A program made the position numbers and the translations under genes. Below the pieces are notes generated by a model, which was given only the letters and a program-made list of their open reading frames with translations, was not told where the DNA came from and did no database searches. From the IMG/VR virus record IMGVR_UViG_3300044846_004119, positions 1-64,000 of that record: a stretch of 64,000 bases of DNA; one strand, given 5' to 3'. This DNA comes from a virus. Shown in pieces: positions 6,418-26,332 of the stretch. Each line of letters begins with the position of its first letter. The first letter of the stretch is position 1.

Positions 6418-6418
6418 A

Positions 6419-7108: not shown

Positions 7109-7120
7109 ATTATTTTTTTT

Positions 7121-7666
7121 TTATTTTTTTATCCCCCAAAAATATAAATCACAGGCACGAGATTCAAATTCAAAATTAAACTCAGTGAATGTGTTATTAA
7201 TATCCATTACCGCTCTAATATCATCTTCTGTTAAATTTTTATAATAATTAGCCCATTTTTCATCGACACCTTCCAAAAACGGTGCATCTGTTGGACTACT
7301 TCTTAAGGTGCCATGTTCAGCTCTACCTGTTGATGCACAAGTAAAAACCAATAACCCACCTGGTCTTAATAATTTAACCATATTTTGTAATGTTCTTGCG
7401 TAGAACATATCATGTTCAAAACATTCTGCAGATGTAACAACATCAAATAGAAATCCTGAATCATATAAGTGACCAGGACAAACAACATCAACGTTATTTC
7501 CCTTACCTAAATCTACACCCACATAATAAAATGGTTGCTCAAATGAATGTTTAATGTTCCCATTGATATCGAGAGACCCAATATCTAATACTTTAACGTC
7601 AGTAAAAAACTTTGGGAGGTGGTCTTTTACTCTTTTAAAAAAATCTTGTTGTAATTCGTGTGACAT
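7121..7666 (-). CDS. Class I SAM-dependent methyltransferase, copy 1
   Basis: A 181-residue Rossmann-fold methyltransferase of the Methyltransf_11 type. Motif I is VLDIGSLDINGN, the acidic second strand VGVDLGKG, then the substrate/SAM region AECFEHD and post-motif LLRPGGLLVFTC. A close paralogue lies at 22376 on the other strand, sharing the start MSHxxQQDF and most motifs, so the two operons probably exchanged or duplicated this gene. Probably O-methylates a sugar in the glycan, or a small precursor. Confidence 0.8.
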   Translation of the reverse strand: MSHELQQDFFKRVKDHLPKFFTDVKVLDIGSLDINGNIKHSFEQPFYYVGVDLGKGNNVDVVCPGHLYDSGFLFDVVTSAECFEHDMFYARTLQNMVKLLRPGGLLVFTCASTGRAEHGTLRSSPTDAPFLEGVDEKWANYYKNLTEDDIRAVMDINNTFTEFNFEFESRACDLYFWGIKK

Positions 7667-7667
7667 G

Positions 7668-8645: not shown

Positions 8646-11329
8646 TCTTTTATAAATGTTTTATGTCCTTTATCTATAAGTGATACACCATCAGCTTGAG
8701 TTGTAATACGTTTATTTAAGATTCCCATATTTAATGAATTTTCCCCAAAAATAATATTAAAGAATGTGTCGGCACAATCCCATTTATGATTTCTTAATTT
8801 ATCTTTTAAAAATTCTCTACTTTTTGCGGGAAATAAAATACATTGTAACCCAATAATTTTATCACAGATAAACAGTATGTCTTGGTTAGGTATTTCTCTA
8901 ACAACTAATGATTGGTGCCACCCAAAATCTAATGTTTTAATATCCCCAAATGAAAAATACCGAATATCTTCTTGGTTTATAATTTCACAAGATTGTTTCA
9001 CTTTCTCAATAAACTCATTAATCGGCACCTCAATTAAACAATCTCCCTCACAAACCATTAAGAAATCTAAATCATTGTCGAACTCAGATAAAATACCGTT
9101 TTTGAATGAATCAAAACACCCGTAATGTGCTGGTGTTAAAGCGTACCCATATTCAGTGTCCGTTTCGTCATATTGGTCCATTCTAACGTTATGAGGTCTA
9201 ACACAATTATGTGATGGTGGTAATGACGTATACAATTCATTGGTATGTAAAACATACTTGATTCCATAAGGAATTACTTGTTGTACCGACTCTCTGGAAA
9301 GAATTTCTCTTTCATCATTATTAGTTGTTTGTAAATGAACTAATTTGATTTTAGGTAGTTTTTTATATTTGAACCATCCGTTGTTTTTATAACTGATAAC
9401 GGTTTCATTATTTAATACATATGACTCTATTTTATACTGAATACCACCCTCAAAAAAAGTTAGTTTAATTTCAGTGGGATTTCCATCAAAATCAATCTCC
9501 TTTAAGAATTCACGATTATTAAGAATATTAAACGATTTTGAATAAATGGTTTCATTATTTTTATTAATCTCAACATTAACGGTTCTATCATCAATATTAT
9601 ATGTAAAGAAATAAAATACCCATTTATTTTGTGTGTTTAATATTGGTAGTATTGAATAGTATTCTGAGTTAGATGAAACACCTTTACCTGAATTAATTAA
9701 GAACGTGTTTTGTTCATTTGTTATGATATTAACGTTGGTATCATTTATTAATTTTTTATAAAAGAAATCCTCTAAAAAGTTTTGGCAATTATTTATTTCA
9801 CATTCTGATTTATAAATTTCTTTAGTTGTTATATGTGAAAATTTATTTAAAAAGAAATCGGTTTTAAATGTCATTGCGGTAGTTTCAATACCAACATTAG
9901 ATGCTGTAGGTAATGTACACAAGAACGCATCTTTTTCATCCAAAGATTCAAACGATTGATTTACATATTCAATGTCATCATGATGTAATATCACATCGTA
10001 GGTTATATAAAATACTTTATTAAAATTAAAATCTTTAGCGGATTTAAACCCATTAATTAAATTAGTTAAAACAGGTAACGATTGGTTAGTATCTTTTAAT
10101 CCATTAATATTAATCTCAACATCAAACTCTGGTTTATAATTATAAAACTTAGTATAGTAAGAATGTTCAGTTGTTGGGTTATTTGAATCAAAAATATAAT
10201 AGTCCACCATTTTTTGAATCTCATCCGATACTGGATAATGAGAAACCAACATTACTTTTCTACCTAATTTTTTAACTGACTCAATACACTCAACAGTTAA
10301 TTTTTCACGTGATTTAGTGTTTGGGTAAGTACCGACAATGACCAATTCATTGTTATCGTACTTTTCCTTACGCGGATTTAAAATAGATAATAAATTAGAA
10401 ATGTCAGTATCAACATTACCCGTTAAAAAAGTAATATTTTCGTAATTATCATACTTTCCACAATAAACATCAAGATTATACATCATCATAGGAATCCTAT
10501 ACTCTAACGCCTCTTTCAATGCGATTGGATTTAGTTCTTTATTATGTCTATCACCTTTTGATGGGAATAGGAATAAATCTGACGCCTCAATAAACGACGG
10601 TACATCTTTTCTTTCACTCCAGATAACACAGTTATCCGGTTTATTATTAATTAAAGGTTCCCAATAAGATTTAAAATTATCCGCCTGATTACCTAAGAAA
10701 TGAAATTTTATTTTATAATCTTTTAATTTATGAGCAATTTCAAAAATATAAGATTGATTTTTTCTTGATGTAAAAAGGCCAACATTTAATACGTGTTTAT
10801 ATGATGGGTCAAAACCGAGCAAATCTTGGTTTTGTTTTTTATTCTTATCTTTATAGTCGACAGGATATTCAACTATTTCATATGGGATATCATATATCGA
10901 ATACCTAAAGGCATTAAACGCACTAACAAAAATAAATTTATCAGGAAACCATCTTTTAGATGACACAGGAAAACTTGAGTCGTGTGTTGTCTCTAATATA
11001 GTATAGGCTCTACCCTCTCGATATAATTCTTTTGTGACAGAGTCATCCATGAAAAATTCAGGGAATTCTTCCATACTAACAACATCAGGTTTAAACTCAT
11101 TAACAATTCTAATTAACTCGTTTTTATCCTCCCCTAATGAATGAAAATTATTACCTAACAAATTTTGTATTTGATTTCTTTGGACAACGTAAGACCACGC
11201 AACAAATGCGTACTCAACGCACTTAATTTCATATTCATCGTTTATTAATTGTATTTTATTTAAAGTTACTTGAGGCGCACCACCAGTGCTTAAATGAGGG
11301 GAAATTACTAATATTTTTTTCTTTTCCAT
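8642..11329 (-). CDS. Multidomain glycosyltransferase: GT4 + YPNT GT-like + C-terminal GT-A-like
   Basis: An 895-residue fusion. Residues ~1-325 are a GT4-type GT-B domain (ISPHLSTGGAPQVTLNK, LNVGLFTSRKNQ, LFLFPSKGDRHNKELNPIALKEAL). Residues ~330-650 repeat the YPNT domain of the next gene (VIVGTYPNT, LVSHYPVSDEIQKMVDYYIFD) followed by a beta-sandwich. Residues ~665-895 form another GT-A-like domain with FLMVCEGDCLIEV as the probable DxD region, reminiscent of GT25-type enzymes. The stop overlaps the next start (ATGA), indicating coupled translation. One polypeptide could add several consecutive sugars. Exact linkages cannot be read. Confidence 0.7.
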   Translation of the reverse strand: MEKKKILVISPHLSTGGAPQVTLNKIQLINDEYEIKCVEYAFVAWSYVVQRNQIQNLLGNNFHSLGEDKNELIRIVNEFKPDVVSMEEFPEFFMDDSVTKELYREGRAYTILETTHDSSFPVSSKRWFPDKFIFVSAFNAFRYSIYDIPYEIVEYPVDYKDKNKKQNQDLLGFDPSYKHVLNVGLFTSRKNQSYIFEIAHKLKDYKIKFHFLGNQADNFKSYWEPLINNKPDNCVIWSERKDVPSFIEASDLFLFPSKGDRHNKELNPIALKEALEYRIPMMMYNLDVYCGKYDNYENITFLTGNVDTDISNLLSILNPRKEKYDNNELVIVGTYPNTKSREKLTVECIESVKKLGRKVMLVSHYPVSDEIQKMVDYYIFDSNNPTTEHSYYTKFYNYKPEFDVEININGLKDTNQSLPVLTNLINGFKSAKDFNFNKVFYITYDVILHHDDIEYVNQSFESLDEKDAFLCTLPTASNVGIETTAMTFKTDFFLNKFSHITTKEIYKSECEINNCQNFLEDFFYKKLINDTNVNIITNEQNTFLINSGKGVSSNSEYYSILPILNTQNKWVFYFFTYNIDDRTVNVEINKNNETIYSKSFNILNNREFLKEIDFDGNPTEIKLTFFEGGIQYKIESYVLNNETVISYKNNGWFKYKKLPKIKLVHLQTTNNDEREILSRESVQQVIPYGIKYVLHTNELYTSLPPSHNCVRPHNVRMDQYDETDTEYGYALTPAHYGCFDSFKNGILSEFDNDLDFLMVCEGDCLIEVPINEFIEKVKQSCEIINQEDIRYFSFGDIKTLDFGWHQSLVVREIPNQDILFICDKIIGLQCILFPAKSREFLKDKLRNHKWDCADTFFNIIFGENSLNMGILNKRITTQADGVSLIDKGHKTFIKE

Positions 11330-11331
11330 TG

Positions 11332-12282
11332 TTATATTAAATTGTTGTTATAAGCGTAGATTAATCCAATATCATTAGACCCAAAAGTGTCTTCAATTAT
11401 AAAGTGGTTTAATTTTAATATTTCAATAACCTCATCATAAATTTCTCTTGAGTGGTATTCCATGGCAATCTTACCAACATTGTTTTGTAAGTATTCTTTA
11501 TTGATAGTACGGAATAAATCTAATTCACCCCCTTCACAGTCGACTTTTAAGAAATCTATTCGAGGAATATCATAATCAGATATTAATTGATTAATGGTGG
11601 TTGTCTCAACAATTTCTTCACCAATAACACTTGATGGGCGAAACCCGTTTTTATTTTTTTGTGAAAAATTATTACCATTAACTTCGGTAATCATAAATTT
11701 TTCAAAACCGTTTTCACTACTAATTGATTTATTAATACAAGTTACATTATATTCTAAAAGATTTTGTTTCATACTCTTAAAGGTTGCTTTTAGAGGTTCA
11801 ACGGCATAAACTTTTTTTGGATTAAACATTTGTGAGTATAATGAGAAAACCCCATAATTAGCTCCAATGTCAACAACAACATCATTAATATTAAGTCTAA
11901 CAAAATCTCTTTCGTATACTTTATCATAAAAGATTTCTGTGACAATTGGGAATAAATCATCCCCCAAATGAGATAATTTAACTTGTTTTGAGTTAATTAC
12001 TAAAAATCTATTTTGACCAAATAGTTTTAATTCCTGAGAATATTGTAGGTCACCATACATAATTGATAAGGTTATGTTTCTAAGTCTTTTCGCGTTAGAT
12101 TCACCAGTTGATATCCACCAATTGGTTCCTTTTTGTAACCCCATGTTTGATTTGTGTACGGTTAACCCCGTATTGTCATCGATAATTGAGACCTCGTATG
12201 TTTCTTTTATGTCATCACCATTAAAGTCAAAATGGATTACGCCATTTTCTTCAATATTAGTTACTGTAAAAATATTATTCAT
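11332..12282 (-). CDS. FkbM family methyltransferase with N-terminal beta-sandwich
   Basis: A 316-residue protein. Residues ~100-300 are a FkbM-type SAM methyltransferase: VDIGANYGVFSLY (motif I), VYAVEPLK (acidic strand), IDFLKVDCEGGE (the family's D-x-E/G-G-E motif) and a terminal AMEYHSRE strand. The first ~95 residues form a beta-rich module (FDFNGDDIKETYEVSII) like the sandwich modules of the neighbouring glycosyltransferases. FkbM enzymes O-methylate sugars or secondary metabolites, so capping or modifying the glycan is likely. It starts one base after a clipped GT2 gene. Confidence 0.8.
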   Translation of the reverse strand: MNNIFTVTNIEENGVIHFDFNGDDIKETYEVSIIDDNTGLTVHKSNMGLQKGTNWWISTGESNAKRLRNITLSIMYGDLQYSQELKLFGQNRFLVINSKQVKLSHLGDDLFPIVTEIFYDKVYERDFVRLNINDVVVDIGANYGVFSLYSQMFNPKKVYAVEPLKATFKSMKQNLLEYNVTCINKSISSENGFEKFMITEVNGNNFSQKNKNGFRPSSVIGEEIVETTTINQLISDYDIPRIDFLKVDCEGGELDLFRTINKEYLQNNVGKIAMEYHSREIYDEVIEILKLNHFIIEDTFGSNDIGLIYAYNNNLI

Positions 12283-12283
12283 A

Positions 12284-12439
12284 TTATATGTGTATAAATT
12301 CGTTATGGATTATTTGTTTGTTTAATGTCACCTCAACTCTAAATTTTTTGAACTCATTTTTTAAGTTTATCCAAGGACGTAAACACTCATCAATATATTC
12401 TTCGGAGTTGTATACCGAAAGTAATATTCCTATTTTCAT
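12284..12439 (-). CDS. Clipped GT2 glycosyltransferase N-terminus (51 aa)
   Basis: A 51-residue frame starting MKIGILLSVYNSEEYIDECL, the typical first strand and helix of a GT2 glycosyltransferase, and ending after ~50 residues without the DxD half. Its ATG overlaps the stop of the GT9 gene by four bases (ATGA) and its stop lies one base before the FkbM start, so the reading frame is held tightly in the operon. It is either a decayed gene or a small peptide left after a deletion that fused the remainder to other genes. Confidence 0.6.
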   Translation of the reverse strand: MKIGILLSVYNSEEYIDECLRPWINLKNEFKKFRVEVTLNKQIIHNEFIHI

Positions 12440-13377
12440 ATAATTTCTAAAATTTTATTAAACACTTGGTCAACCGATGGATGACATTCAAATGTGGGTT
12501 TATTTTCCAAACAATTAATTAATGGAGGCACTCCTTGAATATCTCCCCATTCCTTCACCCCATATTTCATATCAGAACCGCAGAACAAACTACACCCACC
12601 ACCAACATAATGGTATTTATAATCTTGGGAACCGTTTCGATACGGAGCTCTAAATTCTTTGTTAATTGAGCTACCTAATTGTAAAATATTAGAATCGGTT
12701 GTTCCGGCTAAGTGTAATAAACCCGAATCCATTGTGATAAAACACATTGATTTATCAATCAAATGCCATGACTGACTTAATGTTGTTTTATTCATTAGGT
12801 TAATTCCGTTTTTGATTTCAAAATTAAAGATTGGTTTCTTAACATTAAAAAATCCTACTTCGCTAGATTCTTTTCCTATTGAAACAACACTAATGTTTTG
12901 TTCATTTAATCTTTTAGTTAACTCCATCCATTTAACCGCATCCCATGTTCTACTTGGCCAGTTTTGTACAGGATGAATTAGTACGTATTTATCAGGTAAC
13001 TTATTAATTGGTTCGAAAGTGTCGGGAATATAATCCAACCCCATCTCATCTTTAGTTAACATAAACCCAAGTTTAATTGCGTGATATTGTCTTATGTCTA
13101 TTCTATTATGTTTGAACTCAATACCCTTATTATTTTTTTGACCATTTTCATAAAATGAATTATGAGATATAAAATTTGAATTTATAAAGTCTCGATTAAT
13201 TGAACTTGATTGGTATACCTTTTCAACCAACGGATTATTCTTAAATAACTCAGGAAAATCTGTTACAACAATAATTTTTGAGTTATACGAGTCATATAAT
13301 TTTCTAAGGACAGGTGTGGAACATAAAGTATCCCCAATGGCCTTTGCTTCTGTTAAATCAAGACATATTTTTTTCAT
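12436..13377 (-). CDS. GT9 heptosyltransferase-like glycosyltransferase
   Basis: A 313-residue GT-B protein of the ADP-heptose:LPS heptosyltransferase (GT9) type. It has an N-terminal GD-rich loop (LTEAKAIGDTLCSTPVLRKL), VLIHPVQNWPSRTWD and a donor-site region FITMDSGLLHLAGTT. The C-terminus contains four cysteines, C262-x3-C266-x22-C289-x8-C298, recalling the metal-binding cysteines of BAHT-type protein heptosyltransferases, though with different spacing. It is the first gene of the minus-strand operon, divergent from the Thr/Pro-repeat gene. Sugar and acceptor unknown; protein glycosylation is plausible given the cysteine finger. Confidence 0.8.
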   Translation of the reverse strand: MKKICLDLTEAKAIGDTLCSTPVLRKLYDSYNSKIIVVTDFPELFKNNPLVEKVYQSSSINRDFINSNFISHNSFYENGQKNNKGIEFKHNRIDIRQYHAIKLGFMLTKDEMGLDYIPDTFEPINKLPDKYVLIHPVQNWPSRTWDAVKWMELTKRLNEQNISVVSIGKESSEVGFFNVKKPIFNFEIKNGINLMNKTTLSQSWHLIDKSMCFITMDSGLLHLAGTTDSNILQLGSSINKEFRAPYRNGSQDYKYHYVGGGCSLFCGSDMKYGVKEWGDIQGVPPLINCLENKPTFECHPSVDQVFNKILEII

Positions 13378-13468: not shown

Positions 13469-16400
13469 ATGACGAGTCTTGTAATAACTAGTTTGAGTGG
13501 GGTTGGCCCTTTTACCGTAACATTATGCGATATAACTAACACGTATTGTTATATTGTTGCGACTAATGTAACAACCACTCCATTACTAGTTAATATACCA
13601 ATACAGTTAACCAATGTTCAACAAATATTGGTTAATGTTACCGATTCCTATAATTGCGTTGATTTACAATTATATAGTTGCCCTGAACCAACACCAACAT
13701 CAACAATAACCCCAACACCAACACAAACCTTAGGGGGATGTAATTGTATTACATTTACAAACTCAACACTGTTTAACCTTAATTTTGGGTTAGCCGAATG
13801 TAACGGAATTATATTATCGTCAGTAATAAATCCTGGTGTAACTTTGTATTATTGTGGACAATCCCCATATGGGGATGTAGGTGTCGGTATTAATGTTGGT
13901 AATATTTGTATTAATACATGTTATCCACCGACAAATACTCCTACACCAACAAATACACCAACATCTGTAACACCAACACCTACACCAACTAACACACCTA
14001 CACAAACTGAAACTCCAACAAATACGCCAACTAACACCCAAACGCCAACTAACACGCCAACTTCAACTGAAACTCCAACTAATACCCCAACTAATACACC
14101 TACACCAACACCAACTGAAACTCCGACTGAAACTCCGACTGAAACTCCGACAAATACACCAACTGAAACACCAACACCAACTGAAACACCAACACCAACT
14201 GAAACACCATCCCAAACACCTACACAAACACCGACTAACACACCAACAAACACACCAACACCAGGATTATCACCAACCACAACCCCAACTAACACTCAAA
14301 CACCAACAAATACACCAACAAATACAGTAACACCAACTAACACTCCAACTCCAACCCAAACACCGACAAATACACCAACACCAGGATTATCACCAACCAC
14401 AACCCCAACTAACACTCAAACTCCAACCCAAACACCAACAAATACAGTAACACCAACTAACACTTCAAGTCCAACCCAAACACCGACAAATACACCAACA
14501 CCAGGATTATCACCAACCACAACCCCAACTAACACTCCAACACCAACTGAAACACCAACAAATACCCCAACGCCAACTGAAACGCCAACAAATACCCCAA
14601 CTGAAACGCCAACAAATACCCCAACTGAAACGCCAACTGAAACGCCAACTAACACTCCTACCCCAACAAACACACCAACGCCAGGATTATCACCAACCAC
14701 AACCCCAACTAACACTCCAACTCCAACCCAAACACCAACAAATACACCAACAAATACAGTAACACCAACTAACACTCCAACTCCAACCCAAACACCGACA
14801 AATACACCAACAAGTACACCGACGGTAACTCCGACAAATACTCCAACTAAAACTCCGACAAATACTCCTACCCCAACAAATACAGTAACACCAGGATTAT
14901 CACCAACCACAACCCCAACTAACACCCCAACACCTACATCAACCCAAACACCAACAAATACCCCAACCCAAACACCTACCAACACACCAACAAATACCCA
15001 AACTCCAACAAATACCACAACCCAAACACCTACCAACACGCCGACAAATACTCCAACTCAAACACCAACACCAGGATTATCACCAACCACAACCTCAACT
15101 AACACTCCAACACCAACTGAAACTCCAACTAAAACGCCGACAAATACTCCAACAAGTACTCCAACTGAAACTCCAACTAACACACCTACACAAACTCCAA
15201 CAAATACAGTAACACCAACAAATACAGTAACACCAACAAATACTCCTACGACAACAAATACAGTAACACCAACAAATACTGTAACCCCAACAAATACAGT
15301 AACACCAACTAAAACTCCGACAAATACACCAACTAAAACACCAACTAAAACCCCAACTAAAACTCCAACCCAAACTCCAACACCAACTAAAACTCCAACC
15401 CAAACCCAAACTCCAACCCAAACTCCAACTCCTACATCAACGTATATTCCGTCTTGGGACTGTAATGGTATTTATTGTTTTGACCCAGGTGATGGTACAG
15501 GATATTTCTCTACATTTGAAGAGTGTGACAGTATATGTAACACTTATGATTGTGTCGAGGGTAATTGTGAACAAAATTTCACTGGTGAGGGAGAATATGT
15601 TGGTATAATTGAGTGTTTAACTTTTTGTTTACCAACACCAACTCCAACCCAAACACCAACTAATACTCCAACAAATACTCCAACGCCAACTGAAACACCA
15701 ACTAATACTCCAACAAATACTCCAACGCCAACTCAAACACCAACGACAACTGAAACGCCAACCCAAACGCCAACCCAAACGCCAACTAACACTTCAACAC
15801 CAACTAACACTCCAACACCAACTGAAACGCCAACCCAAACGCCAACTAACACTTCAACACCAACTAACACTCCAACACCAACTGAAACACCAACTAATAC
15901 TCCAACAAATACTCCAACGCCAACCCAAACACCAACTAACACTCCAACGCCAACTAACACTCCAACACCAACTGAAACGCCAACCCAAACACCAACAAAC
16001 ACTCCAACACCAACTAATACTCCAACACCAACTGAAACTCCAACCCAAACACCAACAAATACCCCAACACCAACTGAAACGCCAACAAATACCCCAACAC
16101 CAACTGAAACGCCAACAAATACTCCAACTGAAACACCAACTGAAACGCCAACAAATACTCCAACTGAAACACCAACTAACACTCCAACCCAAACTAACAC
16201 ACCAAGTCCAACTGAAACTCCAACAAATACTCCAACTGAAACACCAACAAATACTCCTACCCCAACTGAAACTCCAACAAATACCCCAACTGAAACTCCA
16301 ACAAATACTCCAACTGAAACTCCAACAAATACGCCCACCCCAACTGAAACTCCAACAAATACCCCAACTGAAACTCCAACAAATACTCCAACTGAAACTC

Positions 16401-18733
16401 CGACCCAAACTCCGACCCAAACACCAACTGAAACTCCGACAAATACTCCAACTGAAACTCCAACAAATACGCCCACACCAACTAACACGCCAACACCAAC
16501 AGTTACGCCAACACCAACTAACACTCCAACACCAACTGAAACGCCAACAAATACCCCAACTGAAACACCAACAAATACTCCAACTGAAACACCAACAAAT
16601 ACTCCAACTGAAACGCCAACAAATACTCCAACTGAAACTCCAACAAATACTCCAACTGAAACCCCAACAAATACTCCAACAAATACTCCAACTGAAACTC
16701 CAACTAACACTCCAACCCCAACTGAAACTCCAACAAATACTCCAACTGAAACGCCAACTAACACTCCAACCCAAACTGAAACACCAACAAATACGCCAAC
16801 AAATACTCCAACGCCAACTAACACTCCAACCCCAACTGAAACACCAACAAATACCCCAACTAACACTCCAACACCAACTCAAACGCCTACACCAACTAAC
16901 ACTCCGACACCAACAGTCACACTTGGGTTAACTCCAACACCAACAAATACTTCAACCCCGACAAATACTATAACGCCAACAAATACCCCTACAACAACAA
17001 ATACTCCAACCCAAACACCGACTAACACCCCAACCCCAACAAATACACCAACCCAAACATCAACTAACACCCCAACCCAAACTAACACTCCGACAAATAC
17101 TCCAACTCAAACTCCAACAAATACTCCAACAAATACTCTAACACCAACACCAACAAATACACCAACAAATACAACAACAAATACACCAACAAATACTGTG
17201 ACTCCAACCCAAACACCAACTAACACTCCAACCCAAACACCAACTAACACTCCAACACCAACAAATACACCAACTCAAACACCGACAAATACTCCGACAA
17301 ATACTGTAACTAACACCCAAACACCAACAAATACACCAACAAATACACCAACTCAAACACCAACTGAAACTCCAACAAATACTCCGACAAATACTGTAAC
17401 TAACACCCAAACACCAACAAATACGCCAACAAATACTGTGACTAACACCCCAACTGAAACTCCAACAAATACGCCAACCCAAACTAACACTCCAACTAAT
17501 ACTGTAACACCAACAGTTACACCAACATCACCGCCAGAATTACCAATTTATACTGGTGAAACTGTTTGTGATATTCCATATAACATTAACACAGGGATTA
17601 CAGGTTCTTGGCAGATTACAGTTCAGTTAGGTTCGTATACGGGAACCGTTGCCTGTACTTTTAATGCATATCAGGTACCAGATAAGTTCCAAGTTTTTTG
17701 GGATGGGAATTTGGTTATTGATACAGGGTTTAGGGGTAACGCCATTTTTAATTCACAATTAAATGCCTTAGGATATCCAAGTGTTGTAGGTACAGGTTTT
17801 GTTACTGCTTCTTGGACTAAATTAACAGCGTTTCCTGATTTCGCAACAGTTGTGGTTACCGCTCCTATTGATTCAACTAGATTTTATTTTAAATTGGGTT
17901 GTCCGGCTGTAACACCAACACCAACGGTAACCCCAACCCACACACCAGCACCAACAAATACCCCAACTAATACTCCAACACCTACACCTTTACCGATAAT
18001 ACCACTATGTTCTGTATTAATTAATGGGGGTACTGACGTATCCGCCTATTTTCCATCATCAAATACTAACGTATTGTTAGGTAATTCTTTTACTTTTTCC
18101 CCAGATATTGCACATACAACAACTAAACTATGGTTGTATGATGGGACAATTCTAGAATATGACATAACATTAAGTCCTTGGTCGGCAACGTTCAACAGAA
18201 CTATCGAATACCCTTTAGGTGTTAATTTAGGGAATGGTTTAGGCTCCATTACCAACACTGAGTTAATCTCAACAGACGATACAGTAACACCTAATCAAAT
18301 AATTGTTTTAGATATTACCACAAGTACCGCAGTCTCAACTGTAATTGGAACACTAGGGGTTGGTAGGTATGTTTCGGGTGATATTTTATTAACAACTACA
18401 AATAAAATATTAGTTACTAATGAAGGTAATGATGGAGTATTCCTTAGTCAATATAGTTATCCGTCAGGTACTTTTGAAGTTGAGGTCGATATTACGTCAA
18501 CCACAAGCCAACCGTATGGTTTATTTATTGATAGTGGTAATATATATGTTTGTAACAGTGGTGGTGAAATATATAATGTTGATGTTAACTTCCCATACAC
18601 ACAAACATTATCTAATATCTCAGGATTATTTGTTGGAGGAGCATCTCAAGTACCAAGTTGTTGTGATACTAACCTAAACTTACCACCAACTCCTACACCA
18701 ACAAATACTCCAACACCTACACCAATCGCATAA
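13469..18733 (+). CDS. Giant mucin-like Thr/Pro-repeat virion protein
   Basis: A 1754-residue protein. An N-terminal beta domain with paired cysteines (~1-150) precedes two long arrays of T-P-T-(N/E/Q/P/K/V)-T units, residues ~153-657 and ~722-1354. They are separated by a cysteine-rich duplicate module (~661-720, [16 protein letters not shown] and DCVEGNCEQ). A third beta domain (~1357-1480), a short TPT spacer and a C-terminal beta-propeller-like domain (~1510-1735) follow. The arrays lack hydrophobic residues and N-x-S/T sequons, so they suit dense O-glycosylation, as in mucins. It lies between two glycosyltransferase operons. Likely an extended, glycosylated tail or head fibre. There is no signal peptide. 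Confidence 0.85.
13926..15440 (+). repeat. Thr/Pro-coding tandem array A with higher-order units
   Basis: Six-base coding units (ACN CCN and variants) encode T-P-T-x-T. A distinctive block encoding [13 protein letters not shown] (CCAGGATTATCACC) recurs at 14261, 14381, 14501, 14681, 14891 and 15071. The gaps are 120, 120, 180, 210 and 180 bases, all multiples of 30. Minus-strand open frames here (Val/Gly-rich) are repeat shadows. Confidence 0.9.
15635..17530 (+). repeat. Thr/Pro-coding tandem array B
   Basis: Continuation of the T-P-T-x-T coding array after the cysteine-rich module. It is richer in TPTET and NTPTET units, with one related GLTPTPTNT block near 16924. Synonymous third-base changes between units show that the peptide, not the DNA, is under constraint. 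Confidence 0.9.
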
Positions 18734-18821: not shown

Positions 18822-20069
18822 ATGAAAATATTTGTTCAGATAGCCTCTTATCGTGACCCCCAACTTATCCCAACAATCAAATCAATGTTGGAGAATGCCA
18901 AAAACCCAAAAAATTTAGTAATCGGAATTTGTCGTCAATACCATCCTGAGGATGGGTTTGATGATTTATCAGAATATGCTAAAGATAAACGATTTAGAGT
19001 TATTGATGTTTTATATTCTGACGCTAAAGGAGTTTGTTGGGCAAGAAACCAAGTTCAACAATTATATAAAGGCGAAGAATATACCCTACAAATAGACTCC
19101 CATATGAGATTTGAAAAATATTGGGACGACACCTTAATCAAAATGGTTAAACAACTTCAAAAGAAAGGATTTGAGAAACCTTTATTAACAGGATACGTAT
19201 CTTCATTTGACCCGGACAATGACCCGGAAGGCAGAGTTACGGTACCTTGGAGAATGGCTTTTGATAGATTCATTCCTGAAGGGGCGGTATTCTTTTTACC
19301 TGAAACAATTCCTGGATGGGAAACCCTTAAAGAACCGGTTACTTCACGATTTTATTCTGCCCATATGGCATTCACTCTTGGTCAATTTAGTGTTGAAGTT
19401 CAACACGACCCTGAATTTTATTTTCACGGAGAAGAGATATCAATCGCCGTTAGAGCATTCACTCACGGATATGATTTATTCCACCCACATAAAGTTGTGA
19501 TTTGGCACGAATACACCCGTAAAGGTAGAACAAAACAATGGGACGACGATAAAGAGTGGGGAAAGAAAAATGAATTATCCCATAAAAAAAATCGTCAACT
19601 ATTTGGTATGGATGGTGAAGAGGTAACAATGGATTTTAGTTATTATGGATTTGGAACCGAAAGAACTTTAAAAGACTATGAGATTTATTCAGGTCTTAGA
19701 TTTTCAAATAGAGCCGCACAACAATATACTTTAGATAAACATTACGCACCTAATCCAACAATTTATGAAACTGAAGAAGAATGGTTAGCAAGTTACGCCA
19801 CTATTTTTAAACATTGTATTGATGTTGGTTTTACTCAAGTTCCAGAAAATGACTATGATTTTTGGGCGGTAATTTTTGAGGGTAGTAATGGTAATGAGTT
19901 ATATAGGAAAGATGCGGATAAGGAAGAAATTAATCGATTAAAATCTGACAAAGATGGATATTGTAAAATATGGAGAGATTTTCAAACAACTGAGAAACCA
20001 AATAAATGGATTGTATGGCCACATAGTGAGTCTAAAGGTTGGTGTGAGATAATAACAGGTAACTTATAA
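18822..20069 (+). CDS. GT60-type polypeptide N-acetylglucosaminyltransferase-like protein
   Basis: A 415-residue protein matching the GlcNAc (PF11397/GT60) family. It starts IFVQIASYRDPQLIPTIKSM, followed by ICRQYHPEDG, GVCWARNQVQ, LQIDSHMRF with the DxD-equivalent D92-S-H94, then PVTSRFYSAHMAFT and a PEFYFHGEEISIAVRAFTHG acceptor/metal region. Eukaryotic members attach GlcNAc to Thr of mucin-like proteins or to hydroxyproline of Skp1. Here it directly follows the Thr/Pro-repeat gene by 88 bases and heads the plus-strand sugar operon, so that protein is the obvious candidate acceptor. Family confident; acceptor and donor inferred. Confidence 0.85.
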   Translation: MKIFVQIASYRDPQLIPTIKSMLENAKNPKNLVIGICRQYHPEDGFDDLSEYAKDKRFRVIDVLYSDAKGVCWARNQVQQLYKGEEYTLQIDSHMRFEKYWDDTLIKMVKQLQKKGFEKPLLTGYVSSFDPDNDPEGRVTVPWRMAFDRFIPEGAVFFLPETIPGWETLKEPVTSRFYSAHMAFTLGQFSVEVQHDPEFYFHGEEISIAVRAFTHGYDLFHPHKVVIWHEYTRKGRTKQWDDDKEWGKKNELSHKKNRQLFGMDGEEVTMDFSYYGFGTERTLKDYEIYSGLRFSNRAAQQYTLDKHYAPNPTIYETEEEWLASYATIFKHCIDVGFTQVPENDYDFWAVIFEGSNGNELYRKDADKEEINRLKSDKDGYCKIWRDFQTTEKPNKWIVWPHSESKGWCEIITGNL

Positions 20070-20071
20070 AA

Positions 20072-20920
20072 ATGGTTAAAATTTACGATGAATATGATTC
20101 ATATTTAGAGGGAGGACATTTTTCATCACCAAGAAAAAATTTGGGGAATAAATTGTTTATATATTCCGCTTGTAGAATAATTAGTGAACTATTAGGGTAT
20201 GAGTTAATATCTCCCGAAAACGCGTTAGTAAGAAGAGAAGATACCGAAAATGGACAATATAAAGAAATCCTATTCCCATTTAAAGGTGTTAAAGGAAATA
20301 TTGTGGATGACCCAATTAAAGTTATTCAAGATGGCGACATCATACAATTAGGTAGTATTGAAAATTTAATACAATCCTACCCAAATCATGGATTTTTAAA
20401 TCAATCATATTTTTCAAAATATGATTACATTAAACCATATAAGACTAAGGTTAAAGAATATTTTAAAAGTATCGTTAAAGATAAAAGGGTTGGTAACGAT
20501 TTAGTAATTATGTTAAGAAGTAGTAATTACGACGGAAGTTTTGTTTTACCCGACAGTTATTACCTTAATATTATATCTCAAGAAACTTTTGATAATTTAT
20601 ATATTTCATTTGACCATATAAACAAACATCAATCATTAATTAATAAATTAGAGAAATATAACCCTAAATTAATTGATGGTGATATACTTGAAGTTTTTTC
20701 AGAAATCACATCATTTAATACAATAATCGCCGCTCAAGGAACATTTTCTTTTTGGGCTTGTTTTTTATCTAACGCCAATAAAATATATTGGCCGATTACC
20801 AATGATGGTCCAAATTCCGGTAAAAACTCAAATAACCCCGTGTTTAACTCATATGTTAATTTAACGGTCGATGATGAACCAAGATATGAATTAATAAACG
20901 TAACAGATATATACAAATGA
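20072..20920 (+). CDS. Fucosyltransferase-like (GT11-type) GT-B protein
   Basis: A 282-residue protein with an N-terminal GNKLFIYSACRIISELLGYEL helix (cf. GNQLFQYA of GT11) and a C-terminal IAAQGTFSFWACFLSNANKIYWP segment, like the donor-binding SSFSWWAAYL region of alpha-1,2-fucosyltransferases. It starts two bases after the GT60 gene. Likely adds a deoxyhexose or related sugar to the glycan begun by the upstream enzyme. Fold assignment moderate; donor sugar not proven. Confidence 0.6.
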   Translation: MVKIYDEYDSYLEGGHFSSPRKNLGNKLFIYSACRIISELLGYELISPENALVRREDTENGQYKEILFPFKGVKGNIVDDPIKVIQDGDIIQLGSIENLIQSYPNHGFLNQSYFSKYDYIKPYKTKVKEYFKSIVKDKRVGNDLVIMLRSSNYDGSFVLPDSYYLNIISQETFDNLYISFDHINKHQSLINKLEKYNPKLIDGDILEVFSEITSFNTIIAAQGTFSFWACFLSNANKIYWPITNDGPNSGKNSNNPVFNSYVNLTVDDEPRYELINVTDIYK

Positions 20921-21597
20921 TAAAAACAATCAATTTTAGTCTTTTTGGTACTGAAATGAAGTATTACATGGGAGCCGAAAAAAATGTTATAATTAATAAA
21001 GAATTATTACCAGATTGGACAACCGTAATATATTACCATCCTCAAAACATAATTCAAGGTTATGTCGAAAAACTGTCTTCATTAGGTGCGACAATGGTGG
21101 ATGTGTCAAATATAAAGTTAGGTGATAAAGAATCAATTCACTTCCCATATTTTTGGAGATTTCTTTCATTTTTACAAGACAGTCCCTCAATAGTTAGAGA
21201 TTTGGACAGTAGAATTTCTGAAAGAGAAGTAAAATATATTAGAAAATGGGAAGAAACAAATAAAGATTATTTTATTATCCGAGACCATCCGTGGCATGCA
21301 CCCGTACCAAGTGGGTTATTTGGTATTAAGAAAAAAATAGAAGAGTTTGAAAAACACTTTATTGAGTTTGTTAATATTGATGAGTTACGTTGGGGGTCCG
21401 ACCAAGAAATTTTAAGAATTTATATGGAAAATATTAGTGACGAAAATGTGTTTTATTGTGGTTACGATATTCAAACCAATTATATACATAGAGACGATAA
21501 AACTTTTTTTATTGGAATGCAAATGAATGAAAATGATGAACCAACAGTCCCAAGTGGCGTACAGTGTTTAAATTACCTAAACGAAATAAATTTATAA
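20917..21597 (+). CDS. GT-A glycosyltransferase with RDLDSR motif
   Basis: A 226-residue protein with SPSIVRDLDSRISEREV as the DxD nucleotide-sugar/metal site and IIRDHPWHAPVPSGLFGIKK downstream. These are features I associate with small GT-A transferases in polysaccharide and phage clusters. The start overlaps the preceding stop by four bases (ATGA). No membrane segment; cytosolic. Sugar specificity unknown. Confidence 0.65.
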   Translation: MIKTINFSLFGTEMKYYMGAEKNVIINKELLPDWTTVIYYHPQNIIQGYVEKLSSLGATMVDVSNIKLGDKESIHFPYFWRFLSFLQDSPSIVRDLDSRISEREVKYIRKWEETNKDYFIIRDHPWHAPVPSGLFGIKKKIEEFEKHFIEFVNIDELRWGSDQEILRIYMENISDENVFYCGYDIQTNYIHRDDKTFFIGMQMNENDEPTVPSGVQCLNYLNEINL

Positions 21598-21598
21598 A

Positions 21599-22360
21599 AT
21601 GAAGTATTGTTTTACAACTTTGGCTGTTGGTGAGCCATATGAAGAATTAACCGCAAAGTTATACACAAGTTTAAGAGATAAAACTCAAAACTGTGAATTT
21701 TTTATAACAACAAATAACCCTAACTTCCCTGATTTAGGTGAAAAAATTCACATTAATAGAGAGTCATTACAAAGTCTACACGATTCTAAAGGTGGGTTTA
21801 GTTTTCATTTAAATTATAAGTGTTTATCAATTAAACACGTTTTGTCTAATGAAAAACAAATGTTAGCGTTAGACACAGAATTTAAAAAATTTGATTACGT
21901 AATCTTTACTGACGGTGATTGGATTTTGGAAAGCGGGTTTTCTGAAGAGAAGATTTTAAATATGTTAAATTATATGGAAACCGAAGGATTTGATTTTGCA
22001 TTTGAAAGACCTGCAAGTATCGGTGATGGTAGACGAGACCCTGAAAATAGTTTCTATAGAGATAAAATTTATGATTATGATATATTAGAATATGATAAAT
22101 GGGATGAGGCTCACGTTGTTAATGAACAATGTTTGGTATTTAAAAATAATTATAAATTTAGATTTTTTGCCCAAAGATGGGAACAATTTTTATGGTATTC
22201 AATCCATAATGATATTAGAAACTACCCTGACGGTTTTGAGATTGGGGTATCGGCTTTAGAAGCAGGGATGAAATGGAACTACAATGGAGTGTTTAATCAC
22301 TTTTTACAAGGATGTTTCGGATTTTATACTAAACTTGGTGATTATCACATTAGATTTTAA
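21599..22360 (+). CDS. GT-A-like glycosyltransferase
   Basis: A 253-residue protein with FDYVIFTDGDWIL as the probable acidic DxD site, preceded by an N-terminal strand FTTLAVGEPYEEL like other small GT-A enzymes, and a WEQFLWYSIHND region later. It is one base downstream of the RDLDSR transferase and in the same operon. Probably one further sugar-adding step. No named family assigned. Confidence 0.55.
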   Translation: MKYCFTTLAVGEPYEELTAKLYTSLRDKTQNCEFFITTNNPNFPDLGEKIHINRESLQSLHDSKGGFSFHLNYKCLSIKHVLSNEKQMLALDTEFKKFDYVIFTDGDWILESGFSEEKILNMLNYMETEGFDFAFERPASIGDGRRDPENSFYRDKIYDYDILEYDKWDEAHVVNEQCLVFKNNYKFRFFAQRWEQFLWYSIHNDIRNYPDGFEIGVSALEAGMKWNYNGVFNHFLQGCFGFYTKLGDYHIRF

Positions 22361-22375
22361 TTATATATATATATT

Positions 22376-22912
22376 ATGTCACACAAAGAACAACAAGATT
22401 TCCTAACGTATGTTAGAGACAAATTCCCAAATAAATTTGAGAATTGTAGAGTTTTAGATATCGGCTCATTAGATATCAATGGTAATAACAGGTATTTGTT
22501 TACAAATTACGAATACATCGGACTAGATATTGGTGAAGGAAACAACGTAGATGTTGTATGTAGAGGTCACGAATATAATGATGAAAAATTATTTGACGTA
22601 ATTGTGTCTTCAGAATGTTTTGAACACGATGAATTTTGGGAATTAACAATAAAGAAAGGTATCGATTTACTTAAACCAGATGGCGTGTTTTTATTTACTT
22701 GCGCCACAACAGGTAGACCGGAACACGGAACAAAAAGAACATCACCAAGCGATAGTCCATTTACTTCAAGTTTAGAAAACAATTATTATCGAAATTTAGA
22801 AGAAGATGATATTCGACAATCAATTAATGTTGATGAAATATTTTCAGAATATGAATTTCAAAGTAGACTAAATTGGCCACAAGATTTGTATTTTTGGGGT
22901 ATTAAAAAATAA
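22376..22912 (+). CDS. Class I SAM-dependent methyltransferase, copy 2
   Basis: A 178-residue paralogue of the methyltransferase at 7121. They share MSHxxQQDF, VLDIGSLDINGN, NNVDVVCxGH, SSECFEHDEFW and FTCATTGRPEHGT, which is very high similarity over the whole length. It sits between two glycosyltransferases in the plus-strand operon. The paired copies in both operons imply that methylation of similar substrates is needed in both branches or that the operons duplicated partly. Confidence 0.8.
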   Translation: MSHKEQQDFLTYVRDKFPNKFENCRVLDIGSLDINGNNRYLFTNYEYIGLDIGEGNNVDVVCRGHEYNDEKLFDVIVSSECFEHDEFWELTIKKGIDLLKPDGVFLFTCATTGRPEHGTKRTSPSDSPFTSSLENNYYRNLEEDDIRQSINVDEIFSEYEFQSRLNWPQDLYFWGIKK

Positions 22913-22915
22913 AAT

Positions 22916-23839
22916 ATGAAATCAAAAATTGTAACGGCTTATTGGATGGATGTTGAGGGGTATCCATTTCAAGGAGTACTTCCAGTTAGAAAAATAAGAT
23001 ATCAAGGTTCTTTAATTTCTCATTGTACTGGTAGTGGACTACCGGTTATTTGCTATACTCATAGTAAAAATTATGACGAACTTAATGATATTAAAGTAAA
23101 GTATAATTTAACTAATTTAGAGTTGAAAATATTAGAATTATCTGATGTAAAATATCACGCTGAAATTGAAATGATTAGAAATAATAATTTTGATACCGAT
23201 TTGGATGGTAGAGGTCCTGAAATAATGTGGGGAAAATTTGATGTGTTAGAAAGAGAACTTGACGGATTTGATAGGGTTTATTGGGTGGATGTTGGTTTAC
23301 AACACCCGGGCATATTCCCTTGGATGTACTCTAAAGTTCACAATGAGAATTCTGAAAATTTAGGCGTACCAACAAATTGGTGGGCTCATTTAGATGTGTT
23401 TAATTTTTCAAAATTAATTGATAGTGAAGTGTATGATAAATTAAATAAAATCTGTGAAAATAAAATAATGTTTGTTTGTTCATATGGTCCTCAAATAAGT
23501 TATCCGTTTTTAAATTATGGAATATTAAACAAATCGTTTGAATCTCCATACCCGGTTGGTGGTATGTTTGGTGGAGATGTTCAAGTATTAAAGAAATATA
23601 TAAATTTATTTTGGGAATTCACTGAGAAAATTTTAGAAAAAAACTTACTTTGTACTGAAGAAGTAATTATGAAACCGTCCTACGATTTAATTGATAACGA
23701 TGAAAAGGTTACACTTATGTTTAACGCGTTTGCGTCTGGGGAACACGATGATTATCACTACACTATGTGGAATGAAGGAAAAAATACACCAAAACCTTTC
23801 TATATGATGTGGCACAATATAAAAAATTTTAAAATATGA
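22916..23839 (+). CDS. Glycosyltransferase-like protein, HtrL/YibB-related
   Basis: A 307-residue protein resembling the HtrL/YibB-WlaTC group: an opening strand IVTAYWMDVEG, a helix of MWGKFDVLERELD, the acidic site FDRVYWVDVGLQHPG and a C-terminal PVGGMFGGDVQVLKK region where this group has its conserved F-G-G. The next gene has the same plan and overlaps by four bases. Group members are linked with surface polysaccharide synthesis. Moderate confidence for the family, good for the GT-A-like fold. Confidence 0.55.
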   Translation: MKSKIVTAYWMDVEGYPFQGVLPVRKIRYQGSLISHCTGSGLPVICYTHSKNYDELNDIKVKYNLTNLELKILELSDVKYHAEIEMIRNNNFDTDLDGRGPEIMWGKFDVLERELDGFDRVYWVDVGLQHPGIFPWMYSKVHNENSENLGVPTNWWAHLDVFNFSKLIDSEVYDKLNKICENKIMFVCSYGPQISYPFLNYGILNKSFESPYPVGGMFGGDVQVLKKYINLFWEFTEKILEKNLLCTEEVIMKPSYDLIDNDEKVTLMFNAFASGEHDDYHYTMWNEGKNTPKPFYMMWHNIKNFKI

Positions 23840-25512
23840 ATAAAATAACATTAGTAACCGGTTTATGGGATTTAGGTAGAGATAAACTCACCGAAGGGTG
23901 GTCTCGGACATATCAACATTATTTAGATAAATTTCAACAACTTTTACAAGTTGATGTAAATATGATAATTTTTGGTGATGAGGAATTAGAAAAATTTGTT
24001 TCAGAGAATAGACGTAATGAAAATACACAATTTGTTCGCAGAGAGTTATCTTGGTTTAAAAATAATGATTTTTATGATAAAATACAAAAGATAAGAACCA
24101 ATCCTGATTGGTATAATCAAGTTGGTTGGTTAACAGAGTCAACTCAAGCTAAACTAGAGATGTATAACCCTTTAGTTATGTCTAAAATTTATCTTTTACA
24201 CGACGCAAAAATTTTAGATAAGTTTAATTCAGAATATATGTTTTGGATTGACGCGGGATTAACAAATACAATTCACCCTGGATATTTTACAAGTGATAAG
24301 GTTTTAGATAAACTACCTAAGTTAGTTAAGAATTTCCATTTTGTTTGTTTTCCTTATGAAACAACTAGTGAGATTCACGGATTTAAATATCAAGAGTTAT
24401 GTGAATTAGCAGGAAAACCTGTTAATATGGTTGCAAGAGCAGGATTCTTTGGTGGAAAAAAAGATTTTATTTCTGAAATAAATAGTTTATACTATGGATT
24501 AATGAACGATACATTATCCCAAGGATTGATGGGAACTGAAGAGTCGTTATTTACAATTATGACATACAAATACCCTAATTTAATTACTTATTCTGAAATT
24601 GAAGGTAATGGGTTAATGGGTAAATTTTTTGAGGATTTAAAAGATATGACAGTTGAGGTAAAATCGGAAGTATCAAAAGATGTTGTTGTTAATAATTTGG
24701 ACACATCAAAAGTTGGATTATACGTGATTACTTTTAACTCACCAAAACAATTGGAGGTTCTTATTCAGTCAATGTTAGATTACGATAAAGATTTTGTAGA
24801 GAAACCAAAGAAATTCTTATTAGATAATTCAACTGATTTATCAACAACACCAAGATATCTTGAACTATGTGAACAATATGGTTTTGAACATATTAAAAAA
24901 AATAATATAGGTATTGTTGGTGGTAGAGTATTTGTTGCCGAACATTTTGATGAAACTGATTTGGATTTTTATTATTGGTTTGAAGATGACATGTCATTTT
25001 ATCCTAAAAAGAATGAAGTTTGTAGAAATGGTTTTCCTCGTTTTGTGGGTAACTTATATCAAAAATCATTAGAGATTATTCAAAAAGAAAATTTTGATTT
25101 TTTAAAATTAAATTTTAGTGAATTTTACGGCTCAAACGATATTCAATTCTCATGGTATAATGTGCCCCAAGATTTCAGACAAAAACATTGGCCAAACAAT
25201 CCTAAATTACCTGTACAAGGATTAGACACCAATTCCCCCAAAACAAAATTTGATGAAATACATATTCACAAAGGATTACCATATGTATTGGGTGAGATTT
25301 TTTTATGTAATTGGCCAATTGTATTAACAAAAGAGGGTAATTATAAATGTTATTTAGAGACAAAATGGGCTCACCCTCACGAACAGGTACTAATGAGTTA
25401 TTCTTATCAAGAAACGGTTAAAGGTAATATTAAACCGGGATTACTGTTATTAACACCAACAGAACACAATCGATTTGACCATTATGACGGCTCATTAAGA
25501 AAAGAAAGTTAG
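23836..25512 (+). CDS. HtrL/YibB-type glycosyltransferase fused to GT2-like domain
   Basis: A 558-residue protein. Residues ~1-275 are HtrL/YibB-like (ITLVTGLWDLGRDKL, MFWIDAGLTNTIHPGYF, RAGFFGGKKDF, LMGTEESLFTIM). Residues ~292-540 are a GT2-like domain (LYVITFNSPKQLEVL, DNSTDLSTT, IKKNNIGIVGG, YYWFEDDMSFY with a DD acidic site). It is the last intact gene of the plus-strand sugar operon. The fusion fits stepwise addition of two sugars. Linkages not determined. Confidence 0.65.
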   Translation: MNKITLVTGLWDLGRDKLTEGWSRTYQHYLDKFQQLLQVDVNMIIFGDEELEKFVSENRRNENTQFVRRELSWFKNNDFYDKIQKIRTNPDWYNQVGWLTESTQAKLEMYNPLVMSKIYLLHDAKILDKFNSEYMFWIDAGLTNTIHPGYFTSDKVLDKLPKLVKNFHFVCFPYETTSEIHGFKYQELCELAGKPVNMVARAGFFGGKKDFISEINSLYYGLMNDTLSQGLMGTEESLFTIMTYKYPNLITYSEIEGNGLMGKFFEDLKDMTVEVKSEVSKDVVVNNLDTSKVGLYVITFNSPKQLEVLIQSMLDYDKDFVEKPKKFLLDNSTDLSTTPRYLELCEQYGFEHIKKNNIGIVGGRVFVAEHFDETDLDFYYWFEDDMSFYPKKNEVCRNGFPRFVGNLYQKSLEIIQKENFDFLKLNFSEFYGSNDIQFSWYNVPQDFRQKHWPNNPKLPVQGLDTNSPKTKFDEIHIHKGLPYVLGEIFLCNWPIVLTKEGNYKCYLETKWAHPHEQVLMSYSYQETVKGNIKPGLLLLTPTEHNRFDHYDGSLRKES

Positions 25513-25669: not shown

Positions 25670-26332
25670 ATGGATTTCTACATTAAGAAAAACGCAACCT
25701 TACCTGTGATTAAACTCCAAGTGGTGAAGGATGGTCGAAGTGACTATGATAGCTTCATGAAAACTATTGAGTTATCGGCAATATTCTTTTCAATGGTTGA
25801 TTCTGATACAGGTATTCCAAAAATTAGTTCAAGACCGGCAGGATTTGTTGAGAAAACATTCTTAGACCCCAACGCCGAACCAGAATATTACATTTATTAT
25901 CAATTTACCTCAAAAGACACTAATAGAGTTGGTTCATATGAAGGACAATTTATGTTAAGAAACGATGATGGTGTTTTAATATTGCCAATACGTGAAAAAT
26001 TAAACATCAACATCCAAGACTCATTTATTGCGGATGACTTAGTTTATGATAGTTGTTATGTTTCAGAATTCCCTTGTTGTGTTAACGGACCTTTTGTTTC
26101 GACAACAACAACTTCTCCATGTCCAAGTTGTCCAACATGTCCTGAACCAACACCGACACCTCAACCAACAACAACTACTACGACATATAACCCAACAACA
26201 ACAACCACACATTCGCCAACTCCAACACCAACATTAACACCAACGCCAGAACCCGAAATTTTAATCAATCCTATCTTAGTTGGTGAAGACCAATATTTGA
26301 GTGTTGGGGATAATGAATATTTAGAATATTAA
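25670..26332 (+). CDS. Structural protein with Thr/Pro-rich C-terminal linker
   Basis: A 220-residue protein. The N-terminal ~140 residues form a beta-rich domain (MDFYIKKNATLPVIKLQVVK, YYIYYQFTSKDT). Residues ~143-196 are a Cys-Pro turn (PCPSCPTCPEP) followed by Thr-runs and TPTPTLTPTP. A short tail LVGEDQYLSVGDNEYLEY closes it. It is the first gene of the fibre block and likely a connector or fibre-base protein. The Thr/Pro-rich segment is a possible substrate of the adjacent glycosyltransferases. No family recognised. Confidence 0.6.
   Translation: MDFYIKKNATLPVIKLQVVKDGRSDYDSFMKTIELSAIFFSMVDSDTGIPKISSRPAGFVEKTFLDPNAEPEYYIYYQFTSKDTNRVGSYEGQFMLRNDDGVLILPIREKLNINIQDSFIADDLVYDSCYVSEFPCCVNGPFVSTTTTSPCPSCPTCPEPTPTPQPTTTTTTYNPTTTTTHSPTPTPTLTPTPEPEILINPILVGEDQYLSVGDNEYLEY

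What the first reader, a model, noticed from the sequence alone, without database searches (positions are those of the whole stretch)
18822..20069. GT60-type polypeptide GlcNAc-transferase in a phage
Seen: SYRDPQL, ICRQYHPEDG, QIDSHMRF (D92-S-H94) and SRFYSAHMAF match the GlcNAc (PF11397) family best known from eukaryotes, where members modify Thr of mucins or hydroxyproline of Skp1. It lies 88 bases after the Thr/Pro-repeat gene.
Basis: partly seen in the sequence, partly recalled or inferred. Interest (0 to 1): 0.8.

Follow-up and report, generated by a model that had tools for sequence, protein, structure and literature searches.

The report
Phage mucin-type sugar transferase gene cluster
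A large freshwater phage carries an enzyme of the family that attaches the first sugar to threonine-rich, mucin-like proteins, placed right behind a gene for such a protein; the same pairing recurs in related phages and on bacterial injection-needle spikes, which suggests (but does not yet prove) that viruses and bacteria also make mucin-like sugar coats.

Summary
ORF 18822-20069+ (415 aa) is a full-length PF11397/GT60 glycosyltransferase (E 2e-70). Its DxH motif (D92, H94), E205 and H229 are invariant in 73 homologues. Its AlphaFold model (pLDDT 94.7) matches polypeptide GalNAc-transferases (GT27) best. It starts 88 bases after a 1754-aa Thr/Pro-repeat gene.

What looks new is the context. 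In 49 non-redundant phage loci, the gene directly upstream carries TPT linkers in 42 and is strongly T/P-rich in 27 (permutation mean 11.6). Half of the T/P-repeat viral contigs encode GT60, against 1/19 controls. GT60 and a YibB-type transferase bracket an exchangeable sugar-gene cassette (45 families in 41 loci). In eight Burkholderiales genomes, all eight GT60-linked VgrG spikes have Pro-Ser/Thr repeat tails; 0/22 other VgrGs do (six of these reads are cut off).

Most likely GT60 puts the first HexNAc (probably GlcNAc) on Ser/Thr of P-S/T repeats in tail/spike proteins. A Skp1-like hydroxyproline route is unlikely: the oxygenase occurs in 1 of 28 GT60 phage records. The reaction is untested.

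The parts
18822..20069 (+). GT60/PF11397 glycosyltransferase, 415 aa; catalytic GT-A domain about residues 1-295 (DxH D92/H94, E205, H229) plus C-terminal beta-rich domain about 305-415
13469..18733 (+). 1754-aa Thr/Pro-repeat protein, proposed acceptor; short N-terminal domain shared with 53 of 80 loci, long [11 protein letters not shown] repeats, non-repeat C-terminal part
   Evidence: no Pfam family over cut-off in N-terminal or C-terminal part
20072..23839 (+). variable cassette: 20072-20920 (weak GT11 and phage glycosyltransferase matches), 20917-21597, 21599-22360, 22376-22912 (methyltransferase), 22916-23839; proposed glycan extension and modification
   Evidence: variability across loci
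23836..25512 (+). HtrL_YibB-type protein, the conserved far end of the cassette (73 of 80 loci)
25670..26332 (+). small gene with T/P-rich C-terminus, conserved after YibB in 74 of 80 loci; possible second acceptor
3619..13377 (-). second, opposite-strand glycan-gene block: GT2/GT1/GT9 fusion 3619-6417, 2OG-Fe(II) oxygenase 6419-7108, methyltransferase 7121-7666, unknown 7668-8645, GT1 8642-11329, FkbM methyltransferase 11332-12282, GT9 12436-13377

Best explanation
The gene encodes an active GT60-family polypeptide glycosyltransferase. It most likely transfers a HexNAc, probably GlcNAc from UDP-GlcNAc, with retention onto the hydroxyl of Thr (or Ser) in Pro-Thr repeats of the adjacent tail/fibre-type protein. 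This starts a glycan that the exchangeable glycosyltransferase/methyltransferase cassette between GT60 and YibB extends. The result would be a mucin-like, variable sugar coat on the virion surface. Shown here: family membership, conserved catalytic residues, GT27-like fold in a confident model, non-random linkage to P-S/T repeat proteins in phages and bacteria, constant-variable-constant cassette. Inferred: activity, donor, linkage, acceptor, virion location, and the order GT60 first, cassette later.
For: PF11397 E 2.3e-70; D92, H94, G203, E205 and H229 invariant in 73 phage and bacterial homologues. Model pLDDT 94.7; the 45 best PDB fold matches are all polypeptide GalNAc-transferases, best E 4.6e-11, TM 0.52. 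GT60 and GT27 group together and share DxH in place of DxD (PMC7185993). Upstream gene carries TPT linkers in 42/49 non-redundant phage loci and is T/P-rich in 27/49 (permutation mean 11.6, max 21 of 2000). All 26 GT60-bearing IMG/VR records tested hold TPTxTPTxTPT, none the reversed control. 12/24 viral contigs picked only for T/P repeats encode GT60, 1/19 reversed-pattern controls do (p 0.0015). Bacteria independently: 7/78 loci with an adjacent T/P-rich gene (permutation mean 2.7); in Jiulongibacter the only pattern match in the genome lies between two GT60 genes; GT60-linked VgrGs 8/8 with P-S/T repeat tails against 0/22 unlinked VgrGs of the same genomes, six of those reads being cut off. 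Variable cassette: 133 genes, 45 families in 41 loci, none in more than 14 loci, with GT2, GT10, GT11, GT25, GT34, GT7, methyl-, carbamoyl- and aminotransferase matches.
Against: No biochemistry. Seven of 49 phage loci lack TPT linkers directly upstream; in L019, L062, L064 and L068 the upstream gene has collagen-like repeats instead. XacN1 and RAS14 have no T/P gene beside their GT60. T/P arrays in many bacterial genomes lie far from GT60. The 24 T/P-first contigs include 12 without GT60. The phage loci share ancestry, so they are not independent. No solved structure matches at sequence level. T/P or P-S linkers are also common as plain spacers (own knowledge).
Confidence: 0.6

Rival explanations
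1. The enzyme is a polypeptide glycosyltransferase, but its main acceptor is another protein (capsid, tail tube, collagen-like fibre), and the T/P gene is only a neighbour in a surface-gene island.
For: In L019, L062, L064 and L068 the upstream gene has collagen-like GTS/GSS repeats rather than T/P (PF01391 in L019); XacN1 has GT60 without a T/P neighbour yet two virion glycoproteins were reported (PMC5852040).
Against: Upstream TPT linkers in 42/49 loci, and the VgrG tail pairing, 8/8 against 0/22 with six control reads cut off, in unrelated systems, both point to P-S/T repeats.
Confidence: 0.15
2. The enzyme modifies a host surface polysaccharide or lipid-linked glycan (superinfection exclusion or receptor change) together with the cassette, and does not act on protein.
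For: Cassette neighbours include GT2, GT10, GT11, GT25 and aminotransferase types, which also build host polysaccharides; phage glycosyltransferases that change host serotype are known (PMC12619734).
Against: Closest fold matches are polypeptide transferases; the gene follows a fibre-type gene directly; bacterial relatives sit with T6SS spike genes.
Confidence: 0.12
3. Skp1-like route: the 2OG-Fe(II) oxygenase at 6419-7108 hydroxylates Pro in T/P repeats and GT60 puts GlcNAc on hydroxyproline.
For: A PF13640 oxygenase lies in the same island (E 4.2e-16); Skp1 GlcNAc-transferase acts on hydroxyproline (PMC11570480, abstract).
Against: PF13640 is found in only 1 of 28 GT60 phage records, the window's own; its nearest NCBIfam models, far below their cut-offs, are YhhC and FlmC.
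Confidence: 0.06
4. The enzyme glycosylates phage DNA.
For: Phage glycosyltransferases often do (PMC12619734).
Against: GT60/GT27-type fold, and the neighbours are surface genes and sugar-modifying enzymes.
Confidence: 0.02

Closest known systems
GT60 / PF11397, e.g. Trypanosoma cruzi TcOGNT1 (GlcNAc-alpha-Thr on mucins)
   Same: Profile match E 2e-70, DxH motif, Thr/Pro-rich mucin-like candidate acceptor (PMC9472816)
   Different: Prokaryotic virus, no Golgi; extra C-terminal beta-rich domain; donor and acceptor untested
GT27 polypeptide GalNAc-transferases
   Same: Closest solved fold, DxH motif, Ser/Thr acceptor logic (PMC7185993)
   Different: 12-19% identity, no GT27 sequence match in Pfam or PDB sequence searches; the C-terminal beta domain has no confident PDB match
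XacN1 ORF334 and PHROG 24687
   Same: 48% identity over 99% of the protein; same phage family of glycosyltransferases
   Different: Different clade in the tree; no T/P gene beside it
Mycobacteriophage virion glycosylation (Freeman 2023, cited in PMC12619734 and PMC10568470)
   Same: Virus-encoded sugar coat on virion proteins is the proposed outcome
   Different: Targets there are capsid and tail tube C-termini; here the proposed target is a T/P-repeat fibre-type protein. Enzyme families were not compared.
Skp1 prolyl hydroxylase / Gnt1 pathway
   Same: GT60 enzyme, and an oxygenase gene lies in the same island
   Different: Oxygenase not shared by the other GT60 phages

Membership tests
GT60 / PF11397 | Profile score over curated cut-off across the catalytic domain | tested here: met
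   238 bits against 21; all 73 homologues match PF11397
GT60 / PF11397 | DxH in place of DxD, plus conserved acidic and C-terminal His positions | tested here: met
   D92, H94, E205, H229 invariant in 73; DxH as a GT60/GT27 mark from PMC7185993
GT60 / PF11397 | GT-A fold close to GT27 | tested here: met
   Predicted model only: 45 best PDB matches are ppGalNAc-Ts
GT60 / PF11397 | UDP-GlcNAc donor, retaining transfer to Ser/Thr or hydroxyproline | not testable with these tools
   needs enzyme assay
GT27 ppGalNAc-transferases | Sequence membership | tested here: not met
   No GT27 match by Pfam or PDB sequence search
Skp1-type hydroxyproline GlcNAc-transferase system | Partner prolyl hydroxylase conserved with the enzyme | tested here: not met
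   PF13640 in 1 of 28 GT60 phage records
Moraphage lineage | Marker phylogeny within the lineage | not tested
   Only a shared glutamine synthetase was seen; moraphage sequences not at hand

The most novel reading that the evidence does not exclude
Prokaryotic GT60s form a general mucin-type O-glycosylation system for Pro-Ser/Thr repeat tracts on contractile-tail tip proteins: phage fibres, T6SS VgrG spikes and other injection-system proteins, with a constant initiator and an exchangeable extension cassette in phages.
Probability: 0.4. Interest if true: 0.85.

Novelty: new variant of a known kind. Interest (0 to 1): 0.62.

Why it matters
Mucin-type initiation of Ser/Thr glycans is usually discussed for animals and protists. 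If phages and T6SS clusters use a GT27-like enzyme on Pro-Ser/Thr repeats, then mucin-like coats on tail tips exist in prokaryotes and their viruses. The pairing gives concrete enzyme and peptide substrates to test, offers a target for the unexplained core glycosyltransferases of large aquatic phages (PMC12619734), and the swapped cassette suggests antigen-like variation of the phage surface.

Tried and rejected
Skp1-like hydroxyproline route: rejected as the general mechanism because the oxygenase is not shared. Comparing PolB relatives with and without GT60 gave no usable contrast: three of the four GT60-negative contigs have PolB near a contig end and lack T/P too, and in the fourth (G076) the T/P array lies at the contig end. 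Sequence search for solved structures found only chance matches. The C-terminal domain modelled alone (pLDDT 87) had no PDB match better than E 0.056, so no lectin role is claimed. An alignment (A4) held one wrong row by my mistake and was replaced. Two earlier scripts for VgrG tails chose frames or motifs poorly; one search supersedes them, though six of its 22 unlinked reads do not reach the end of the gene. Published work on GT60 or glycosylation in T6SS was looked for in one search, and no title or abstract in its list dealt with it; no paper of that list was read in full.

Full report
Observation. ORF 18822-20069+ has 415 codons and contains every quoted motif, including D92-S93-H94. It begins 88 bases after the stop of the 1754-aa T/P-repeat gene 13469-18733+, with no terminator-like site found between them. 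Pfam gives PF11397 at E 2.3e-70, 238 bits against a cut-off of 21; PHROGs gives phrog_24687 'glycosyltransferase' at 7.6e-168. The window is the start of a 177,135-base virus record with tail sheath and helicase, tail tube and baseplate hub and PolB.

Family breadth. GT60 is described as present in prokaryotes and protists, next to GT27, with DxH replacing DxD in both (PMC7185993). The INPHARED search gives three phages, with XacN1 at 48% identity over 99%. The plasmid search gives eight records, several already named 'GlcNAc-transferase family protein'. IMG/VR gives 349 matching stretches and GTDB genomes 272; both counts depend on the search patterns, and only the best 80 of each were kept. 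Predicted viral structures include 'Glycosyltransferase, GlcNAc' of uncultured Caudovirales. So a GT60 in a phage is not new in itself. XacN1's authors had already suggested that its two virion glycoproteins could be made by its own glycosyltransferases (PMC5852040).

Catalytic parts and fold. In 73 phage and bacterial sequences D92, H94, G203, E205 and H229 are invariant. The AlphaFold model has mean pLDDT 94.7 and pTM 0.86. Its 45 best PDB matches are all polypeptide GalNAc-transferases, best E 4.6e-11, TM 0.52 by query length. That these residues act as in GT27 is by analogy; distances in the model were not measured. The C-terminal part, modelled alone, is beta-rich without a confident relative.

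Origin. In a tree of 104 sequences the window's clade sits among sequences from Bacteroidota, while XacN1 and RAS14 fall on a separate branch with Neisseriaceae and Burkholderiales. This suggests at least two phage acquisitions and a Bacteroidota host; supports are mixed and several branches are long. The record also has a glutamine synthetase, a trait of the 'moraphages', large freshwater phages with predicted Bacteroidota hosts and four core glycosyltransferase orthogroups of open function (PMC12619734). Membership was not tested. That the window's own phage comes from fresh water is inferred from this resemblance; the tools do not give its source.

Link to T/P repeats in phages. Across 80 loci the GT60 gene mostly follows a surface- or fibre-type gene by 22-313 bases. 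Among 49 non-redundant loci the immediate upstream gene carries a TPT linker in 42 and is strongly T/P-rich in 27; shuffling gene positions gives a mean of 11.6 loci with an adjacent T/P-rich gene and a maximum of 21 in 2000 trials. These loci share ancestry. All 26 IMG/VR GT60 records tested (the window's own included) contain TPTxTPTxTPT, with zero hits for the reversed pattern. In the other direction, of 24 contigs of about 60 kb or more picked only for T/P repeats, 12 encode GT60, against 1 of 19 picked by the reversed pattern; Fisher p 0.0015. Some of the 12 belong to the same phage group, so the p value is optimistic, and three of them (L523, L527, L529) show no T/P gene near their GT60.

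Constant ends, variable middle. In 41 non-redundant loci GT60 and a YibB-type gene bracket 0.7-7 kb with 133 genes of 45 families, none in more than 14 loci. Matches among representatives include GT2, GT10, GT11, GT25, GT34, GT7, methyltransferases, a carbamoyltransferase, an aminotransferase and an epimerase. A fixed first enzyme with swapped extenders is what an initiating transferase would look like; the order of action is inference.

Bacterial relatives. Seven of 78 non-redundant bacterial loci have a T/P-rich direct neighbour, permutation mean 2.7, maximum 8. In Jiulongibacter the only TPTxTPTxTPT match in 4.5 Mb lies between two GT60 genes. Other genomes have T/P arrays far from GT60, so the link is partial. 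In Burkholderiales the gene sits in T6SS clusters after a fimbrial-type gene (PF00419), and all 15 VgrGs that a motif search found in these stretches end in low-complexity repeats, mostly Pro plus Ser/Thr, with varied units (one, L118, is richer in Ala, Ser, Asp and Glu). As a control, VgrGs were pulled from eight of these genomes: 8 of 8 GT60-linked VgrGs have P-S/T repeat windows, 0 of 22 others do. Limits: six of the 22 control reads are cut off (five run to the end of the fetched stretch, one is a 404-aa partial match), so the clean contrast is 8/8 against 0/16; the linked VgrGs are orthologues, not independent events; the test was designed after I had seen the tails, and its window thresholds were set with them in view. 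Repeat units differ among orthologues while Pro and Ser/Thr persist, which would fit selection for composition.

Hydroxyproline alternative. A PF13640 oxygenase lies in the window at 6419-7108-, which made a Skp1-like route worth testing. It is found in only 1 of 28 GT60 phage records, the window's own, so it is not part of the shared system.

Verdict. The gene is a GT60 glycosyltransferase with high confidence. Ser/Thr of P-S/T repeats in the neighbouring fibre-type protein is the best-supported acceptor, GlcNAc the likeliest sugar by family. No activity, glycan or virion location has been shown. New here, as far as the searches made show, is the recurrent pairing with P-S/T repeat tail and spike proteins and the cassette layout.

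Noticed in passing
L086, L089, L109, L116, L118-L122, L124, L127, L131, L133, L141, L150 (VgrG near 13-16.5 kb, minus strand): VgrG spikes in GT60-bearing T6SS clusters carry long C-terminal repeats (TPTP, PPPSEE, PPQTEE, TPDE, PSDEQPE) that were not found in other VgrGs of eight of these genomes.
   Followed up: partly
L086, L089, L107, L159, L165 upstream of GT60: A fimbrial-type (PF00419) secreted protein gene directly precedes GT60, in T6SS clusters of Burkholderiales and Enterobacterales; role unknown.
   Followed up: partly
window 28681-29757+: LCIB_C-type beta carbonic anhydrase (PF18599, E 3e-29) in a phage.
   Followed up: no
window 36503-38080-: Fe/Mn superoxide dismutase domain (E 6e-39) within a 525-aa phage protein with a large extra C-terminal part.
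   Followed up: no
window 1-740: Collagen-like Gly-X-Y (GTS/GSS) repeats, from the tandem-repeat units.
   Followed up: no
L139 6234-9994: Actinobacterial MAG: two GT60 genes in tandem with long C-terminal extensions (a PqqD match occurs in one member of alignment A2, which does not include this locus), followed by a small protein with a twin-arginine-like start and TPTP repeats.
   Followed up: no
L125 4387-8004, L130 4388-7996: Large protein upstream of GT60 with T/P linkers; in L125 a Rv2525c-like glycoside-hydrolase domain lies at the C-terminus (L130 not scanned).
   Followed up: partly
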